Shown one piece after another: positions 4,944-9,240 of a stretch of 11,294 bases of DNA; positions within the stretch are counted from its first letter, which is position 1, and every line of letters begins with the position of its first letter. The translations under genes were made by a program, and so were the position numbers. The notes below the pieces were generated by a model that was not told where the DNA came from, ran no database searches, and saw only the letters and a program-made list of their open reading frames with translations. Source of the DNA: Methanobacteriota archaeon (lineage in GTDB: Archaea; Hydrothermarchaeota; Hydrothermarchaeia; Hydrothermarchaeales; JACRDW01); NCBI GenBank assembly GCA_016212785.1, contig JACRDW010000141.1, forward strand, positions 1 to 11,294, given 5' to 3'.

Positions 4944-5016
4944 AGCCCGGTAGTGTAGCGGTCAATCATGCGGGACTCTGGATCCTGCGACAGAGGTTCG
5001 AATCCTCTCCGGGCTA
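4944..5016 (+). tRNA. tRNA-Gln (anticodon CTG)
   Basis: A 73 nt intronless tRNA. The acceptor stem AGCCCGG (4944-4950) pairs with CCGGGCT (5009-5015), and the discriminator is A5016. The anticodon stem CGGGA/TCCTG closes the loop CTCTGGA, giving anticodon CTG at 4978-4980. The T arm is AGAGG-TTCGAAT-CCTCT. No CCA is encoded. The last 17 bases, plus one base beyond the gene, are repeated exactly at 5112-5129. Confidence 0.95.
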
Positions 5017-5017
5017 T

Positions 5018-5111
5018 AACCCTTTCTTTTAAAAAGAAAGGTCTATCACCCCAAAGAAAATAGAGTCAATATTTATTTTCCGCCAGCGCTTTTATTAAAA
5101 GGGCTGGTTCT
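5018..5111 (+). mobile_element. Short hairpin-capped insertion downstream of tRNA-Gln
   Basis: A 94 bp block bounded by exact 18 bp direct repeats GAATCCTCTCCGGGCTAT at 5000-5017 (inside tRNA-Gln) and 5112-5129. One end has a hairpin with 9 bp arms CCTTTCTTT/AAAGAAAGG (5021-5041) followed by TCTATCACCCC. The other has a two-part hairpin CCAGC-G-CTTTT / AAAAG-G-GCTGG (5083-5107). There is no coding potential. The TAACCC...AAAGGTCTATCACCCC end recurs in inverted orientation between top6B and top6A (6464-6494), and the other end, GGCTGGTTCTGAATCC (5102-5117), recurs beside tRNA-Lys. I read it as a tiny non-autonomous insertion; an integrase-type att scar is the alternative. Confidence 0.6.
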
Positions 5112-5128
5112 GAATCCTCTCCGGGCTA
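5107..5128 (+). pseudogene. Partial tRNA-Gln 3' end (T arm and acceptor strand)
   Basis: GGTTCTGAATCC followed by TCTCCGGGCTA matches the T loop, T-stem and acceptor 3' strand of the intact tRNA-Gln at 4944-5016, except for one inserted T in the loop (GGTTCTGAATCC against GGTTCGAATCC). There is no 5' half. It is best explained as the far side of a duplication made when DNA inserted at the tRNA 3' end. Confidence 0.75.
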
Positions 5129-5129
5129 T

Positions 5130-5227
5130 TCTCAGCATTCGTCGCATTCGCTCCTCTGCCGAGACCCAAATTTGCACTACACCAAAGGTGTAGTGCGAAA
5201 TGATGGTCAACCTTTCAGAAGGTTGCT
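5130..5227 (-). repeat. Partial copy of the insertion family, with two hairpins, behind top6A
   Basis: This 98 bp spacer between the tRNA fragment and the top6A stop has no gene. It carries a perfect 10 bp hairpin, GCACTACACC-AAA-GGTGTAGTGC (5174-5196), and a second hairpin, CAACCTT-TCAG-AAGGTTG (5208-5225). The sequence GCGAAATGATGGTC plus the second hairpin matches, in inverted orientation, one end of the block between top6B and top6A (6334-6363), with paired changes in the stem (AACCTT/AAGGTT against AGCCTT/AAGGCT). The rest (5130-5165) shows only an ATTCGTCGCATTCGCTC simple-repeat flavour. Confidence 0.55.
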
Positions 5228-6319
5228 TTATATCCAGTCCCCGCTTTCCAGCTTCGTCGGTATGTAAACGTCTGTCATGAAGGTAATACCGTGCTTTGCT
5301 AAAGCCTGGAGCTCAGCTTTTTCTCTGCGGTCTATCATTAACTTGAGCTCGCTGTACCAGCGCTTGTTGTTTTTTATCCAGGGATACTCGAGCATGGTCT
5401 GCGCCTTTTTAATATCCCACTCGGTCATCTCGAGGCGTGCTGCCTTTGGAACTTTGAATTTGTCGAGGTCGCTCGGCAGCAGGCCGAGGAAGCGCGCGCT
5501 CGGAACTGCGAGATATGCGCTCTCGAAGCTCAGCGAGATGCTGCCCCTCTTGTAAGAAGAGCATATCTGCATTCCGTAGCTGTCGCTGTCCGTAAGGACG
5601 TAAACAGGCAGCTTCCACTCCTTGTTCAGCCTCCTGATTAACCGCCTCGTAGCAATGTCAGGCTGCCCCTTGCCCGTGATGAGCAGGCATTTATTCTTCT
5701 TGTGGAAATCTTCTTCGACCAGTCGAATCAGCGCGGCATCCTTCTCCACCACGAGCACGTAGTCAGCGCCGCAGTCAACGATGTCGACTTCGTCTATGAA
5801 GGGGCTCACAGACCAGCCGCCTCTGCCCAGGCCGCTGCAGTTGAATTTATCTTTCCCTTCTCTCAGCGTTAAGTCGCCTATGCACACGCCCTTGGCTGTC
5901 GCAACGACGCGCAGGCAGGGTCTCGTGACGCCCATGGTAACTGCAATGTCCTCGATTAGATTGTCGCTCGCATCCTGGTCTTTATTGAATAGCTCAGGGT
6001 CCTGATAGTATATTTCTCTCTTCGTGAGGTGCTTCTTCTTCTCCGCAGTCTCCTGAAGAACGCTCAGGACGAACAGCATTTGAGTAAATGCAGTCGTGGT
6101 TGCAACGCTGTGAAAAGTCCTGCTCGATTTTTTGCTGCCCAGATATATGACGTCGCTTTTTTCGTCATAGAAAAAATTGCCTGCGCCGCGGTTAGGCACC
6201 TCGAAGCCAGGATTTTTTCTCCTCTCTATATCCTTCAAAACATTTTCTGCAATGCTGCATATACTCTTCAGCAGTTCCTTCGCGGGCAGTTCTTCCTTTA
6301 CAATCGTTTTGGACCTCAT
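5228..6319 (-). CDS. top6A: DNA topoisomerase VI subunit A (Spo11-like)
   Basis: A complete 363 aa DNA-cleaving subunit of the type IIB topoisomerase, which relaxes and decatenates DNA as an A2B2 tetramer with Top6B. The winged-helix (CAP) domain carries REIYYQ at 101-106 with the catalytic tyrosine at Y105. The Toprim domain has the acidic residue E192 (VVEKDA) and the Asp pair D244/D246 in TDSDSYG, which holds Mg2+ at the cleavage site. Many relatives have DxDPxG, so the serine at 247 is unusual but not expected to be disabling. Length is usual. The ATG at 6319 has GAGGTGA upstream within a 16 bp sequence that also forms the end of top6B. It is the last gene of the RHH-top6B-top6A operon. 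Confidence 0.95.
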   Translation of the reverse strand: MRSKTIVKEELPAKELLKSICSIAENVLKDIERRKNPGFEVPNRGAGNFFYDEKSDVIYLGSKKSSRTFHSVATTTAFTQMLFVLSVLQETAEKKKHLTKREIYYQDPELFNKDQDASDNLIEDIAVTMGVTRPCLRVVATAKGVCIGDLTLREGKDKFNCSGLGRGGWSVSPFIDEVDIVDCGADYVLVVEKDAALIRLVEEDFHKKNKCLLITGKGQPDIATRRLIRRLNKEWKLPVYVLTDSDSYGMQICSSYKRGSISLSFESAYLAVPSARFLGLLPSDLDKFKVPKAARLEMTEWDIKKAQTMLEYPWIKNNKRWYSELKLMIDRREKAELQALAKHGITFMTDVYIPTKLESGDWI

Positions 6320-6331
6320 TTCATTTCACCT
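6316..6331. repeat. 16 bp direct repeat, copy at the top6A start
   Basis: TCATTTCATTTCACCT here equals 6495-6510. On the minus strand it reads AGGTGAAATGAAATGA and supplies the Shine-Dalgarno and start codon of top6A; the other copy supplies the last codons and stop of top6B. Removing one copy and the block between would restore a classic ATGA stop-start overlap. Confidence 0.85.
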
Positions 6332-6494
6332 CACAGCCTTCAGAAAGGCTGGCTATCATTTCGTGGTATTTCGCTCCAGCGTAAAGCTGGTGCGTTAGAC
6401 TCTCGCTCTTGCTCACGCAAGCGCTCAATACCACAAATCCTATGACGTTGCTTTCGGGTTTTTGGGGTGATAGACCTTTTTCCAAAAAGGGTTA
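6332..6494 (-). mobile_element. 163 bp hairpin-capped insertion between top6B and top6A
   Basis: A non-coding block bounded exactly by the 16 bp direct repeats 6316-6331 and 6495-6510. Read on the minus strand, it opens with TAACCC and the hairpin CCTTTTT/AAAAAGG (6475-6490), followed by TCTATCACCCC, as in the tRNA-Gln insertion. It closes with ACGAAATGATAGCC and the hairpin CAGCCTT/AAGGCTG (6334-6351). Inside are CTTGC-TCAC-GCAAG (6408-6421) and a CCAGC/GCTGG hairpin near 6376-6391, within a GTGGTATT...AATACCAC pair (6363-6370 with about 6426-6433). There is no open frame of note. Such a gap is unusual because top6B and top6A are normally adjacent or overlapping. Confidence 0.7.
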
Positions 6495-6510
6495 TCATTT
6501 CATTTCACCT
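6495..6510. repeat. 16 bp direct repeat, copy at the top6B stop
   Basis: Identical to 6316-6331. It encodes the last residues of top6B (GEMK) and its TGA stop on the minus strand. Confidence 0.85.
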
Positions 6511-8411
6511 ACTACAGGTCTTCTTTTCCTTATTTCAGCTGCAAGCAGGTCGTACACTTTGTCTTTTTTCACTTTCAGCATTTTGGAGAGCGTCAGCGCA
6601 ACGACCTCTGCATGCTTCTCTAAAAATTCCCTCGCTTTGCTAAACTGCTCGCTCCTCTCCATTAAGCTTACATGCTGCCTGAGCTTTCGAGATGCCGCTT
6701 GGAGCGCAAGCTTTATTTCGTCTGCTATGACGTCGTCTGCGCCCACAGCTTGCTTCGCAACGCCCAGGTATTTTAGCTGGGGCGAAGTAACGTGCACTAC
6801 AAAGATAACAGGGAGAACCGGCAGCTCTCCTTTCTTTCCCAGCTTGTATATGCTCCAGTCTATGTCCCTTGCGGTCTGCGTTATTATGTCGCTGCCGAAT
6901 TCGTACAGCAGAGGAGTGCAGTTTGCAACTCTGATGAGCTTATCATGGTCTTTCAGATTGTCCGGAATCTCGCCGCCGTACATCGCAAGCACCTGCACCT
7001 GAACAGGCCTTCCCTTGGTGCTCGTGGGATTCCTCTTTACGTAAGTGTACTTTTCAGGCTTGTATATCGTAACAAATCCCTCGACAAACGTTTCGTCCGG
7101 AACCGGCATGAGCGAATCAACCGGCGGCGATGGAAAAGACATGCTGCGAAGCGTTTCCGCAAGAAGGCGGACTTTATTATCGTCGCTCAGAATCATATTT
7201 ACTGTTGTTTTTTCTGTAAAGATATTCTTCGGCAGCGCATCTCCGCTGAGCTTGAAAAATTTCTTGAGCTCCTCGTTGTCTAGAGCTCTTATATTCAGAT
7301 TAGAATTAAACTTCCCCTTCGAAACGAGCTGTGCTGCATACTCGTAGTCTATCTCGACCTCGTGCACGAGGGTTTTCAGGTAGGCGACTAATTTGCTCGG
7401 GTCGTTTTTAAGCTCCTGCACCTTTGAGCTCTGGGCTACCCTCTTTATTATATCGCCGGCAAAGAGATTGCGCTCGTCGAAATACAGAAGTATCGAAGAC
7501 CTCTCCAGTAAATCCTTAACTCCCTTCTCGCCGATTCTGCAGAAATTGCGCTTCAGAAATCCTGCGAGACTTATGCTCCTTATTCTCGACTGAAGCGCGA
7601 GCATGTCCTTCAGCTGCCCTATGTCAACGCTGTTTGGATGCGGCGGAACAGGCTTTGGTATCGGTATTCCTGCGCCGCTCCGCTTCGGATACTCTATCGC
7701 AGTGCCGTTTTCTTTTAAAACAAATGATATATAGGGATGAATTGCGGCCATTCTCTTTATGAATTCCAGAATGTTCGCTCTGGCTCTTGAGTAATCACCT
7801 ATCATGTTTATGCTCATTCCCGTGCCGTGCTTAAGGAATTCGCTCTCGTACGTTTCTTCAGCTAGCTTGGTCACCTTTCCCTTTCCATAGTCATACACAT
7901 GCCGGTGAGCCTGCTTTTCAGAAAAAGTCTTGCTTATTATTTCCAGGGGTTTGCCGGTGCTCTGGCTTGCGTATATAGCAGCTGCAGTCCAACCAACGCC
8001 CTGCTGGGAGCGGGAAGCCTTGTACTCTATGGTTCCTGTCCCGCCTGCCCTCACGATGATTTGCACCTTGCTGCGAGGTATTCCGATTCCGTTGTCCTGT
8101 ATGGTGAGCTGCAGTTCATCTCTTGACCTGTCAACAACGCTTATAGAAACTTCGATTCTCGCATCATAGTCGTCACTGCCTGTCGATTTGAGCAACGCTT
8201 CCCTCGCCTTGTCAATCGCATCTGTAGAATTCTGCACTCCCTCCGCGACTGCCTGAAATGGTGCTCTAGCTTTTTGTCCAAAGCCTGTGTCAACGCGCTT
8301 CAGAAGTTCTTCTGCACTCTGCAGGCGGATGTGTTTATGTATCTCATCTTCTGCTTTTCTTCTAGAAATTTTTTGTTTTCCTGCGATGTCAGTAAGCAAC
8401 AGCTGCTCCAT
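6495..8411 (-). CDS. top6B: DNA topoisomerase VI subunit B (GHKL ATPase), divergent
   Basis: A complete 638 aa ATPase subunit of topoisomerase VI. Its GHKL Bergerat fold reads AEGVQNSTDA at 56-65 (catalytic E57, Mg-binding N61), DNGIGIP at 106-112 and SQQGVGWTAAAIYASQSTGKP at 135-155 as the ATP lid. The transducer domain includes GRPVQVQVLAMYGGEIP, matching the conserved AYGG region. ATP binding closes the dimer gate during strand passage. Several motifs depart from common archaeal Top6B: E-G-V-Q-N-S-T-D-A replaces the usual E-L-V-x-N-S-L-D-A, and there is an insertion after it (KAREALLKSTGSDDYDA). It is clearly a Top6B by order of motifs and by neighbouring top6A. The ATG at 8411 has GGAGAGGT upstream and lies inside the 3' end of the small RHH gene (23 nt overlap). 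Confidence 0.93.
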   Translation of the reverse strand: MEQLLLTDIAGKQKISRRKAEDEIHKHIRLQSAEELLKRVDTGFGQKARAPFQAVAEGVQNSTDAIDKAREALLKSTGSDDYDARIEVSISVVDRSRDELQLTIQDNGIGIPRSKVQIIVRAGGTGTIEYKASRSQQGVGWTAAAIYASQSTGKPLEIISKTFSEKQAHRHVYDYGKGKVTKLAEETYESEFLKHGTGMSINMIGDYSRARANILEFIKRMAAIHPYISFVLKENGTAIEYPKRSGAGIPIPKPVPPHPNSVDIGQLKDMLALQSRIRSISLAGFLKRNFCRIGEKGVKDLLERSSILLYFDERNLFAGDIIKRVAQSSKVQELKNDPSKLVAYLKTLVHEVEIDYEYAAQLVSKGKFNSNLNIRALDNEELKKFFKLSGDALPKNIFTEKTTVNMILSDDNKVRLLAETLRSMSFPSPPVDSLMPVPDETFVEGFVTIYKPEKYTYVKRNPTSTKGRPVQVQVLAMYGGEIPDNLKDHDKLIRVANCTPLLYEFGSDIITQTARDIDWSIYKLGKKGELPVLPVIFVVHVTSPQLKYLGVAKQAVGADDVIADEIKLALQAASRKLRQHVSLMERSEQFSKAREFLEKHAEVVALTLSKMLKVKKDKVYDLLAAEIRKRRPVVGEMK

Positions 8412-8553
8412 GTTGCGACCTCTCCTTTCTTGCTTTTAAATAAAAATCAATCAGCCTGTTAATCAAGTCGTCATAAGTCTCTTTTTTCATTCCTATCTCC
8501 AACAGGCGTTCTCTAGTCTTTTTCTCCAGCTGTATAGTTGTTATATTCTGCAT
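8389..8553 (-). CDS. Small ribbon-helix-helix-like protein upstream of top6B
   Basis: A 54 aa protein: strand ITTIQLEKKT, helix RERLLEIG, turn MKKETYDDLIN, helix RLIDFYLKARKE, then a short tail. This pattern and length match the VapB/CopG-like ribbon-helix-helix group of archaeal DNA-binding or antitoxin-type proteins (DUF7557-like). No toxin gene is next to it; instead it overlaps top6B by 23 nt and heads the topoisomerase VI operon. The frame is open further upstream into the tRNA-Phe gene, but the ATG at 8553 with a TATA box about 29 nt upstream is the sensible start, probably on a leaderless or very short-leader transcript. Inference: it may repress its own operon by binding the repeat at 8561-8578. 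Confidence 0.75.
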   Translation of the reverse strand: MQNITTIQLEKKTRERLLEIGMKKETYDDLINRLIDFYLKARKERSQHGAAVAY

Positions 8554-8560
8554 ATATTTT

Positions 8561-8588
8561 CTATTTGAAACTATTTGATATATATAGG
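8561..8588 (-). promoter_or_regulatory. TATA box and tandem repeat (possible operator) of the RHH-top6BA operon
   Basis: On the minus strand, CCTATATATATC (about 8577-8588) is a strong TATA box centred about 29 nt before the RHH ATG. Between it and the ATG, TCAAATAG occurs twice with a period of exactly 10 bp (8571-8578 and 8561-8568), one helical turn apart. This is the arrangement expected for a ribbon-helix-helix dimer-of-dimers site covering the transcription start. Confidence 0.55.
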
Positions 8589-8651
8589 TTTCGGTATATA
8601 TAATTTTCCTGAGAGCATGCGAAAAGTAATGTTTATGGGTGTCGGCACAAA

Positions 8652-8779
8652 TGGAGTGGGGGGGATTTGAACCCCCGACATCCAGATTTCTGACACTTGC
8701 GACAGCAAGGCGCAATGCTTCTCTACTTGCTCACGCAAGGTCTTCAGTCTGGCGCTCTCCCAGTCTGAGCTACCACTCC
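8652..8779 (-). tRNA. tRNA-Phe (anticodon GAA) with a 54 nt intron
   Basis: The acceptor stem GGAGTGG (8773-8779) pairs with CCACTCC (8653-8659), and the discriminator is A at 8652. The D arm reads GCTCAGACTGGGAGAGC. The anticodon stem CCAGA/TCTGG closes the mature loop CTGAAGA, with anticodon GAA at complement 8743-8745. The T arm is GGGGG-TTCAAAT-CCCCC. The intron sits after position 37. Mature length is 74 nt and no CCA is encoded. Confidence 0.95.
8688..8741 (-). other. tRNA-Phe intron with bulge-helix-bulge splice sites
   Basis: The canonical position 37/38 intron. Loop bases 32-35 (CTGA) pair with intron TCAG to form the 4 bp central helix. The two 3 nt bulges are AG|A and AA|A, cut as marked. 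The 54 nt intron holds two copies of the mini-hairpin CTTGC-NNNN-GCAAG (plus-strand 8696-8709 and 8726-8739). The left arm of one and the right arm of the other could also pair to extend the splice helix. Confidence 0.88.
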
Positions 8780-8836
8780 GGTGTATTCTGGGAGTAGTTT
8801 TTACGTTGGTAGTAAATAAAGTTTTTCTTATTGAAA

Positions 8837-8863
8837 ACAAACGGGCCGACGGGATTCAGAACC
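8837..8863 (-). pseudogene. Partial tRNA-Lys 3' end
   Basis: The plus-strand sequences ACAAACGGGCC and GACGGGATT (8837-8856), then GAACC, match the T arm, acceptor 3' strand and 5 bp beyond the end of the intact tRNA-Lys (9074-9099). There is one deleted C in the acceptor strand and small changes in the T loop (GGTTCTGAATCC read on the minus strand). There is no 5' half. Confidence 0.75.
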
Positions 8864-9073
8864 AGCCTTTTCTTTGAAAAAGAAAACCCTTGCGTAAGCA
8901 AGACTTGCGCCCAGCTGACGCTTGCGAGAGCAAGACGCTATGCCTTTGCACCCAGCTGATGCTGGGGAAAAGAAAGTATGCCATGGGTGTCGGCGGAAGT
9001 CTGGCATTCGAGAAGACAGACGTAGGAACAATCCCTACGTCAAGTTGTTTGAAAAGCTTGCCAGACAACGCTG
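8857..9073 (-). mobile_element. 217 bp structured block between the tRNA-Lys fragment and tRNA-Lys
   Basis: Non-coding DNA bounded by the tRNA-Lys 3' end (9074-9094) and its near-copy (8837-8856). It is packed with hairpins in plus-strand order: TTTTCTTT/AAAGAAAA (8868-8886), CTTGC-GTAA-GCAAG (8889-8902), CTTGC-GAGA-GCAAG (8921-8934), CCCAGC-TGAT-GCTGGG (8951-8966), and a two-level structure with outer arms GTCTGGCA/TGCCAGAC (8999-9006, 9059-9066) and inner arms GACGTAGG/CCTACGTC (9019-9026, 9034-9041). An imperfect 17 bp direct repeat, TTGCRCCCAGCTGAYGC, lies at 8905-8921 and 8946-8962. The left end shares 16 bp with the tRNA-Gln insertion (8852-8867). Open frames crossing it run into tRNA sequence and are not believable genes. 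Confidence 0.6.
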
Positions 9074-9078
9074 ACAAA

Positions 9079-9185
9079 CGGGCCCGACGGGATTTGAACC
9101 CGCGACTAACTGGTCGCCCTCACGTGCGCCTCTTGCACGCAAGTGTTAAGAGCCAGCCACTCTAGCCAGACTGAGTTACGGGCCC
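9079..9185 (-). tRNA. tRNA-Lys (anticodon CTT) with a 32 nt intron
   Basis: The acceptor stem GGGCCCG (9179-9185) pairs with CGGGCCC (9080-9086), and the discriminator is G at 9079. The D arm reads ACTCAGTCTGGCTAGAGT. The anticodon stem GCTGG/CCAGT (one G-T pair) closes the mature loop CTCTTAA, with anticodon CTT at complement 9148-9150. The T arm is GCGGG-TTCAAAT-CCCGT. Mature length is 75 nt and no CCA is encoded. Confidence 0.95.
9115..9146 (-). other. tRNA-Lys intron with bulge-helix-bulge splice sites
   Basis: The canonical position 37/38 intron. Loop bases CTCT pair with intron AGGG (one G-T pair), with bulges TA|A and CG|A cut as marked. The 32 nt intron contains a shorter relative of the repeated mini-hairpin, CTTGC-AC-GCAAG (plus-strand 9132-9143), which would fold as CTTG/CAAG with a 4 nt loop. 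Confidence 0.85.
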
Positions 9186-9190
9186 ATAGC

Positions 9191-9240
9191 CCTTTTGGAA
9201 TTCATCCCAAAAACCCAAGGGTAACGTCATAAGTATTTTC
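9191..9240 (+). repeat. Partial copy of the insertion family between tRNA-Lys and the FrhB-like gene
   Basis: CCCAAAAACCC (9206-9216) and AACGTCATA (9223-9231) occur in the same order and spacing in the block between top6B and top6A (reverse strand, 6456-6466 and 6441-6449). They are preceded in both by CCCTTTT-GGAA and an ATCA(C/T)CCC join. The tRNA-Gln insertion shows a weaker match (GTCAATATTTATTTTCC against GTCATAAGTATTTTCC). The copy lies in the divergent upstream region of tRNA-Lys and the FrhB-like gene. Confidence 0.55.

What the first reader, a model, noticed from the sequence alone, without database searches (positions are those of the whole stretch)
5017..9240. Dispersed family of short non-coding elements with conserved ends and variable middles
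TAACCCTTT...AAAGGTCTATCACCCCAAA opens the tRNA-Gln block and, inverted, the top6B/top6A block. CGAAATGAT(A/G)G(C/T)C plus an ARCCTT/AAGGYT hairpin closes the latter and recurs inverted at 5197-5225. CCCAAAAACCC with AACGTCATA is shared between the top6 block and 9191-9240. Stems differ by paired changes (AACCTT/AAGGTT against AGCCTT/AAGGCT), which suggests the hairpins matter. I know of no named archaeal element with these ends, though I cannot search.
Basis: partly seen in the sequence, partly recalled or inferred. Interest (0 to 1): 0.8.

Follow-up and report, generated by a model that had tools for sequence, protein, structure and literature searches.

The report
tRNA-seeking elements with three-strand ends
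Two groups of uncultured archaea carry a family of short DNA insertions that often land in or beside tRNA genes, duplicate the DNA they land in, and end in hairpins with a third strand that changes in step with them, as a triple helix would require; what moves them is unknown.

Summary
The window's genome (Hydrothermarchaeota-like) holds 23 left ends at E<=0.001, while 22 order/class relatives and 36 other archaeal genomes have none. 18 of 29 Altiarchaeota-phylum genomes have hits. Copies are insertions: 26 of 81 are flanked by direct repeats, against 3 of 76 controls, of variable length (11-59 nt aligned). In the window, a 16-bp repeat carries the top6B stop on one side and the top6A start on the other, so both genes stay intact. 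29 of 81 copies lie just behind a tRNA T-arm (shifted controls 0-3 of 50-72); some interrupt tRNA genes like introns. The left hairpin is followed by a third strand mirroring its purine arm in 48 of 51 informative copies, directly copying it in none; 0 of 20,000 shuffles match. This is the signature of an intrastrand triple helix; right ends show it less strictly. Reverse transcriptase, Cas1, DDE_Tnp_1 and Y1_Tnp do not track the element over 12 genomes. Triplex formation, mobiliser and splicing remain inferred.

The parts
5000..5017 (+). left direct repeat, 18 bp, 3' end of tRNA-Gln (T-loop to discriminator plus T)
   Evidence: sequence; alignment (L002 +)
5018..5111 (+). element copy at the tRNA-Gln 3' end
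   Evidence: R1 69.2 bits at 5016-5060 (this copy is in the model); flanked by the two direct repeats
5016..5046 (+). left terminal hairpin of the tRNA-Gln copy (TTTCTTTT / AAAAGAAA arms)
5053..5060 (+). third strand AAAGAAAA, mirror image of the purine arm
5082..5107 (+). right terminal hairpin of the tRNA-Gln copy, with a T-rich stretch 5075-5080 in front
5112..5129 (+). right direct repeat, second copy of the tRNA-Gln 3' end
5174..5225 (+). middle hairpin plus right-end hairpin without a left end, just behind the top6A stop codon
   Evidence: (I2)
6316..6331 (-). direct repeat carrying a ribosome-binding-site-like AGGTG and the start codon of top6A
   Evidence: L002 -; ORF 5228-6319
6332..6494 (-). 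element copy between top6B and top6A
   Evidence: R1 53.1 bits at 6456-6495 (this copy is in the model); direct repeats on both sides
6334..6351 (-). right terminal hairpin of the top6 copy
6363..6434 (-). middle hairpin of the top6 copy with smaller palindromes nested in its loop
   Evidence: sequence
6456..6495 (-). left terminal hairpin and third strand of the top6 copy
6495..6510 (-). direct repeat carrying the stop codon of top6B
   Evidence: ORF 6495-8411
9186..9240 (+). degenerate left end at the 5' end of the tRNA gene 9079-9185 (- strand)
   Evidence: 9.8 bits, E=0.57, 9199-9216; I3; tRNA
8837..8889 (-). right-end type hairpin (8866-8889) followed by a copy of the 3' end of the tRNA at 9079-9185: scar of a further insertion lacking a recognisable left hairpin
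   Evidence: D1 8837-8866 / 9074-9103, 70%; sequence

Best explanation
A family of short (about 90-200 bp) non-autonomous mobile DNA elements. SHOWN by sequence: many copies are flanked by a direct repeat of the target, of variable length; they sit preferentially at tRNA genes (3' end, 5' end, inside) and also at starts or ends of protein genes; the left terminus is a hairpin with a pyrimidine arm, a purine arm and a third strand that mirrors the purine arm, and some right termini show the same layout. INFERRED: at each such end the strand whose 3' end is the terminus folds, when single-stranded, into an intrastrand triple helix (T.A-T, C+.G-C and, in the G-run at the left end, G.G-C). A recombinase supplied in trans recognises this folded end and joins it to widely and variably staggered nicks; repair gives the long direct repeats. 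Because the repeat is long, a tRNA gene or a stop/start overlap hit by the element is restored on one side, so the element can live inside essential genes of a compact genome; copies in anticodon loops survive if they are removed as introns.
For: Insertion: 26 of 81 copies have a flanking repeat (alignment score >=10) against 3 of 76 controls; window top6 repeat 16 bp, tRNA-Gln 18 bp; L142 about 45, L141 about 50. The top6B/top6A junction is tight in the 3 of 6 relatives in which my script read it, L051-L053. Targeting: 29 of 81 behind a T-arm vs 0-3 of 50-72; tRNA model matches over the full model length span the element in L090, L091, L092, L098, L104, L182, 6 of 20 loci given. Third strand: 48 of 51 informative copies exact mirror, 0 direct copy; 38 of 40 among copies not used to build the model; C-run 3 goes with 3 in 55 of 58, 4 with 4 in 21 of 22 (third-strand C-run counted less its first pyrimidine), Fisher 8e-17; 48 of 55 distinct rows vs shuffled mean 14.1, max 25. 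Strand: bottom-strand stem pairs 271 of 291, top 262 of 291. DNA rather than RNA (weak): in the middle and right hairpins of 7 copies 17 cells change on both sides and none on one side. Right ends with the inverted layout: L186, L014, L149.
Against: 55 of 81 copies show no clear flanking repeat; of the 26, L189 is a neighbouring paralogous tRNA and L088 (11 nt) and L106 (13 nt) score no better than the best control (13). Repeat length varies more than most transposases allow (recalled). Right ends mirror less well: by my reading about half of some dozen distinct right ends keep the exact T-run length, and type-a right ends have no third strand. Short-armed left ends are uninformative. Beyond the stem the third strand matches the loop in only 30 of 74. 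8 of 21 left stems have G.U at one base pair on the bottom strand, which RNA would also tolerate. On the left stem two measures do not exceed shuffles (pairs changed on both sides 279/500, pair types 497/500). No autonomous relative was found; no biophysical test exists.
Confidence: 0.6

Rival explanations
1. Retro-like spread: an RNA read from the bottom strand ends in a MALAT1-like triple helix and is copied into nicks by target-primed reverse transcription, giving a conserved 3' end, a variable 5' end and variable direct repeats.
For: Left end conserved, right end variable (but copies were found by their left end); long variable repeats; G.U at the stem base on the bottom strand; a triple helix with the poly(A) tail protects a plant retrotransposon RNA (PMC12501189, seen only as a listing with the start of its abstract).
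Against: RVT_1 found in 1 of 12 element-bearing genomes and in neither G000, G055 nor single-contig G066. Middle and right hairpins of 7 copies change without G.U intermediates. Some elements carry the same layout at the other end on the other strand.
Confidence: 0.1
2. Casposon-derived miniature elements moved by a Cas1-type integrase.
For: Casposons hit tRNA 3' ends and have direct repeats of 1-27 nt, median 15 (PMC4046053, passages), like the 15-18 bp of several G000 copies.
Against: Cas_Cas1 in 2 of 12 genomes: G000 (that hit's frame carries one TAG) and G071; none in G055 or G066. Direct repeats of about 45-57 nt lie outside the casposon range.
Confidence: 0.08
3. Miniature elements of a DDE transposase that makes long variable repeats, as IS1549/IS1634 do (a special case of the best explanation; the odds overlap).
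For: Those two elements give repeats of 8-514 bp (PMC2266710, passages); DDE_Tnp_1 hits in 6 of 12 genomes, 5 over the cut-off, 8 places in G066.
Against: None in G000 or G055, whose copies score best (they also made the model); tRNA targeting and three-strand ends were not seen in the passages I read on that family. Other DDE families were not searched.
Confidence: 0.15
4. No enzyme of its own: palindromes spread by replication template switching, with the backward jump making the direct repeat.
For: Explains variable repeat length, nested palindromes, perfect hairpins and why G000 lacks the searched families apart from one Cas1.
Against: Does not explain the left boundary at AT/ARCCC, the tRNA 3'-end preference or a mirrored third strand kept over 17 different arms.
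Confidence: 0.12
5. Not mobile but functional: transcription-end, tRNA-processing or intergenic control elements kept in place.
For: Many copies lie directly behind stop codons or tRNA 3' ends; several IMC4 copies are followed by a recurring TTATAAG-like stretch before a start codon.
Against: Duplicated target flanks, insertion inside tRNA genes and at a stop/start overlap, apparent re-insertion (L004, L191), and absence from 22 order/class relatives.
Confidence: 0.05

Closest known systems
Intrastrand triplex motifs of bacteria (PIT / TMECO, ITxF survey, PMC4666352: abstract, section 15, first part of section 20 and passages read)
   Same: Three consecutive blocks on one strand able to form an intrastrand triple helix; dispersed; linked there to genome instability.
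   Different: The motif studied in depth there is G/C-rich and highly conserved, always intergenic, with no link to mobile elements found; tRNA occurs 0 times in the text. The survey also counts A/T-rich motifs (section 16, not read). Here arms are A/T-rich and differ between copies while the third strand follows, copies carry direct repeats, and they target tRNA genes in archaea.
Casposons (PMC4046053, passages)
   Same: tRNA 3'-end targets, target left intact, repeats near 15 bp as in several G000 copies.
   Different: Casposons are large and carry Cas1 and PolB; here about 90-200 bp, no Cas1 in 10 of 12 hosts, repeats up to about 57 nt, and insertion inside tRNA genes as well.
Mobile-element disruption of tRNA-Thr in Caldiarchaeum (PMC3293823, abstract and passages)
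   Same: An inserted element beside a tRNA gene, with a tRNA fragment as direct repeat and intron gain.
   Different: There a 1.8-kb sequence predicted to encode a recombinase and present in six regions; here a short non-coding family at many tRNA genes in two phyla.
IS1549/IS1634 (PMC2266710, passages)
   Same: Long direct repeats of variable length.
   Different: They encode a DDE transposase; no triplex ends or tRNA preference seen in the passages read.
REPINs/RAYT and IS200/IS605 palindromic elements (recalled)
   Same: Inverted pair of hairpins around a variable middle.
   Different: Recalled as leaving no target duplication; Y1_Tnp absent from G000 and G055.

Membership tests
Classical MITE of a DDE transposase | short, non-coding, dispersed copies | tested here: met
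   no ORF of 80 aa or more is confined to the window copies
Classical MITE of a DDE transposase | terminal inverted repeats | tested here: inconclusive
   Both ends are hairpins, often with an ATCA-like motif, but not simple inverted repeats; right ends fall into several types (by reading)
Classical MITE of a DDE transposase | short target duplication of fixed length (recalled) | tested here: not met
   aligned repeats 11-59 nt among 26 of 81 copies
Classical MITE of a DDE transposase | related autonomous element | tested here: inconclusive
   DDE_Tnp_1 absent from G000 and G055, present in 6 of 12; other DDE families not searched
Casposon derivative | Cas1 homologue in the host | tested here: not met
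   absent in 10 of 12 genomes incl. G055 and G066
Casposon derivative | tRNA 3'-end target with 1-27 nt repeat | tested here: inconclusive
   fits G000 copies, exceeded in other genomes
Tyrosine-integrase element at a tRNA attachment site | one fixed attachment sequence per element and an integrase | tested here: not met
   different tRNAs and non-tRNA targets in G000; PF00589 absent from G000, G073, G082, G083, present in 8 of 12
REP/REPIN, IS200/IS605 | Y1 transposase in the host | tested here: not met
   absent in G000 and G055, present in 3 of 12
REP/REPIN, IS200/IS605 | no target duplication (recalled) | tested here: not met
   duplications
Intrastrand triplex motif | pyrimidine arm, purine arm and matching third strand on one strand | tested here: met
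   48 of 51 informative left ends
Intrastrand triplex motif | stem 6-15 nt and loops of 1-6 nt (survey definition) | tested here: inconclusive
   stems as called are mostly 6-15 nt with hairpin loops of 2-7 nt; the linker from stem to third-strand C-run is about 5-9 nt in the rows kept, so some fit and some do not
Intrastrand triplex motif | triplex in solution | not testable with these tools
   needs CD, NMR or melting
Archaeal tRNA intron | interrupts a tRNA that is otherwise complete | tested here: met
   tRNA model hits over model positions 1-71 spanning the element in 6 of 20 loci given; the other 14 not shown by this test
Archaeal tRNA intron | bulge-helix-bulge splice sites | not tested
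   joins exons by brute force without a control and does not fix the splice sites
Any Rfam family | match to a covariance model | tested here: not met
   window: only three tRNAs up to E=1

The most novel reading that the evidence does not exclude
A new class of mobile element whose termini are defined by a fold, not a sequence: an intrastrand DNA triple helix at the 3' end of each strand, recognised by an unknown recombinase that acts at loops of tRNA genes, makes long variable duplications, and is a source of new archaeal tRNA introns (an archaeal counterpart of introners).
Probability: 0.3. Interest if true: 0.95.

Novelty: new variant of a known kind. Interest (0 to 1): 0.8.

Why it matters
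Intrastrand triplex motifs have been counted in bacterial genomes, but triplex formation in the cell was not shown in the survey I read (PMC4666352). Here evolution has run the test: 17 different arms, each with its own matching third strand. The family also gives a copy-rich system in which to watch how archaeal tRNA genes gain introns and fragments, and it points to an unidentified mobiliser shared by two archaeal phyla.

Tried and rejected
Rejected: (1) a known RNA family. (2) RNA-only reading of the hairpins: no one-sided changes in 7 type-a copies; the left stem does have one-sided cells, 1 each at two pairs, so this is weak. (3) Third strand as a direct copy of the purine arm: 0 of 51. 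(4) Third strand explained only by pairing with the opposite end: type-a copies lack such a partner and still mirror (second L004 copy, L007). (5) A virus carrying the ends: five pattern scans of viral contigs gave one hit, L222; it lies inside a long ORF of a phage-like contig, R1 scores it 17.8 bits, E=0.009 in that contig, and by my reading it lacks the CCC/GGG hairpin. Plasmid collections were not searched. (6) Pattern hits elsewhere: L041, L046, L047 and L026, L027 have no such hairpin by my reading; L025 was not examined. (7) An IMC4 stretch (L143) with an ORF between an element end and a tRNA-Ser 3'-end copy: reads as a small membrane-like protein, not searched in any library; not followed. 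(8) Splice sites by brute force: 17 of 18 copies gave some tRNA call, but with many alternatives and no control, so not used as evidence.

Rows dropped: the scan gave 86 rows; I dropped 5 (L062, L161, L167, L196 and one of two L087 rows) because their linker or arms are unlike the family. Three of them would be informative and do not mirror, giving 48 of 54. The scan itself requires a C-run and an A at the start of the third strand. The three incomplete mirrors among the 51 are L014 (one copy), L015 (third strand follows the purine arm, which differs in length from the pyrimidine arm) and L098 (8 of 11 matched). R1 scored only 102-150 candidates per genome, so copy counts are lower bounds.

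Paper searches: 10 used. Altiarchaeota+transposable+tRNA and Altiarchaeum+tRNA+intron each gave 0 papers; Altiarchaeota+mobile genetic elements+repeat gave 4, seen only as listings. The library holds open-licence PubMed Central papers only, so absence there is weak.
Full report
OBSERVATION. Two of the 15 (ends of contigs C136 and C139) look like one locus seen twice. The host is a Hydrothermarchaeota-like archaeon: the best named Top6B relative, P0002, is 90% identical and called Candidatus Hydrothermarchaeota. Pfam confirms top6A and top6B and other ordinary neighbours.

DISTRIBUTION. A covariance model (R1) built from 21 left ends, 13 of this genome and 8 of Altiarchaeota MAG G055, finds 23 left ends at E<=0.001 in the window's genome and 48 hits at E<=1, several of them the same hairpin read from the other strand. 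Among 61 genomes searched as relatives only 3 have a hit at E<=0.001: the window's own and two of one foreign family (G033, G055); 22 same-order or same-class genomes and 36 other archaeal genomes have none (with Infernal's stricter filters). In the phylum of G055, 18 of 29 genomes have hits. So the family is widespread in Altiarchaeota and present in one Hydrothermarchaeota-like genome whose held kin lack it: horizontal spread is likely (inference). Bin contamination is unlikely for this window, because its Top6B is 75% identical to an order relative but at most 29% to G055's.

ANATOMY. Left end: AT/ARCCC, a pyrimidine run, a short loop (2-7 nt as called), the purine run, a linker such as GGTCTATCA or GTGCTTCA, a C-run, then a third strand. 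Then often a middle hairpin of variable sequence, and one of several right ends. In 7 type-a copies (those without nested inserts) the middle and right hairpins pair in 98% of cells, 9 of 15 pairs change on both sides and none on one side only; 0 of 500 shuffles reach the covariation score, though 411 of 500 reach the number of pair types, and slid structures fall to 36-46% paired. The left stem also covaries by cells changed on both sides (15) and by score, 0 of 500 shuffles each, but not by number of pairs changed (279 of 500) or of pair types (497 of 500).

THIRD STRAND. I scanned all loci fetched by then and kept 81 copies of 86 rows (dropped rows are told under Tried and rejected). If the 5' arm is C^n T^m C T^k, the third strand is, after one further pyrimidine, C^n A^m G A^k: over the A/G part the mirror image of the purine arm, not an inverted and not a direct copy. 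Of 51 copies with an asymmetric arm, 48 are exact mirrors, 0 direct copies; among copies not used for the model 38 of 40, with 16 different arms; the C-run follows too (3 with 3 in 55 of 58; 4 with 4 in 21 of 22; Fisher 8e-17). Among 55 distinct rows 48 mirror fully, against a shuffled mean of 14.1 and maximum of 25 in 20,000 shuffles. Beyond the stem, the third strand matches the first loop base in only 30 of 74. Simple duplication does not make mirror repeats (established knowledge); a triple helix needs them. Read on the bottom strand the third strand lies parallel to the purine arm with T.A-T, C+.G-C and, in the G-run, G.G-C triads; read on the top strand the C-run would not fit. Stem pairs also favour the bottom strand (271 of 291 against 262 of 291). 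Some right ends show the same layout on the other strand (L186, L014, L149 among others), but less strictly. That triads form is inference from covariation.

INSERTION. Comparing 61 nt of left flank with the DNA downstream, 26 of 81 copies score >=10 against 3 of 76 controls whose flank was taken 200 nt further up; maximum control 13. Of the 26, L189 is two neighbouring tRNA-Ser genes, and L088 and L106 (11 and 13 nt) score within the control range. Lengths in the window genome are 15-18 nt where exact (top6 16, L015 15, tRNA-Gln 18, L014 18) and up to 24 when gapped into the T-loop; others reach 45-59 nt (L142, L100, L185, L166, L191), close to the 61-nt flank examined. In the window the 16-bp repeat AGGTGAAATGAAATGA holds the stop codon of top6B on one side and the start codon of top6A on the other, so what reads as an ATGA stop/start overlap was split without harm to either gene. 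In the relatives that could be read (3 of 6) the junction is tight (L052: stop, one base, start; L053 overlapping; L051 about 30 nt). L004 and L191 look like second insertions at an earlier one.

TARGETS. 29 of 81 copies have a tRNA T-arm motif (up to one substitution) 8-26 nt upstream, against 0-3 of 50-72 at seven shifted positions; for exact T-arms the distance is 14-16 nt in 13 of 19, that is, the element starts one or two bases behind the tRNA. A looser heuristic, without a control and with some doubtful calls, puts another 16 inside tRNA genes. By my reading, 15 of the 23 copies in the window's genome touch a tRNA gene, two of these at a duplicated tRNA fragment. In other Altiarchaeota the element interrupts the tRNA, by my reading in the anticodon loop: tRNA model matches over model positions 1-71 span it in L090, L091, L092, L098, L104 and L182, 6 of 20 loci given. 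Others lie in the D-loop with the 5' part of the tRNA duplicated (L100, L165, L166, L179, by reading). Splicing was not shown.

WHAT MOVES IT. In 12 element-bearing genomes, RVT_1 is found in 1, Cas1 in 2, DDE_Tnp_1 in 6, Y1_Tnp in 3, tyrosine integrase in 8. Of these the window's genome has only the Cas1; G055 has one integrase and none of the others. The drafts are incomplete, so a mobiliser may be missed, and many families were not searched. I therefore name no mobiliser.

COMPARISON. The end structure is of the kind called intrastrand triplex motif, surveyed in bacteria and archaea by Holder et al. 2015 (PMC4666352; abstract, section 15, first part of section 20, and passages read): there the motif studied was not associated with mobile elements, and tRNA does not occur in the text. 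tRNA 3'-end targeting and repeats near 15 bp recall casposons (PMC4046053, passages); long variable repeats recall IS1549/IS1634 (PMC2266710, passages); element-linked tRNA disruption was proposed for Caldiarchaeum (PMC3293823, abstract and passages). None of these, in what I read, combines the features found here.

VERDICT. A real, mobile, tRNA-seeking family with three-strand ends; family and insertion are well supported (about 0.9 in my judgement), the three-strand constraint strongly so, triplex as the physical cause likely (about 0.75), mechanism of movement open.

Noticed in passing
alignments of L002, L014, L004, L024 (two), L033, L188, L149: In tRNA 3'-end insertions the second copy of the tRNA end differs from the first in or next to the T-loop (one or two bases inserted, deleted or changed) in 7 of the 8 listed; the alignment of the eighth, L149, starts just behind the T-loop. 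Junction filler, or loss of a re-insertion target; unexplained.
   Followed up: partly
window 8652-8779 and 9079-9185 (- strand tRNAs), 6380-6430: Small palindromes of the types CTTGCG..AGCAAG and CCAGC..GCTGG recur inside tRNA introns and nested in element loops; perhaps a second class of tiny palindromic inserts.
   Followed up: no
L143 about 5170-5900 (- strand): A membrane-like ORF of about 155 aa (by reading from an internal start) sits between an element end at tRNA-Ser and a duplicated tRNA-Ser 3' end in IMC4: possible cargo-bearing copy.
   Followed up: partly
L137, L138, L140, L141 (IMC4): Near-identical copies followed by a recurring stretch like AGGATATACGTTATAAGACAATAAAAA shortly before a start codon: the element may supply a promoter.
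   Followed up: no
L191 (G083): Apparent tandem array of partial tRNA plus element in front of another tRNA with an insertion.
   Followed up: no
G001-G022: Top6B has no match in the 10 genomes of family f2 and in 6 other genomes of the window's class, while 6 others keep a form 66-75% identical to the window's; possible loss or replacement of topoisomerase VI (several drafts incomplete).
   Followed up: no
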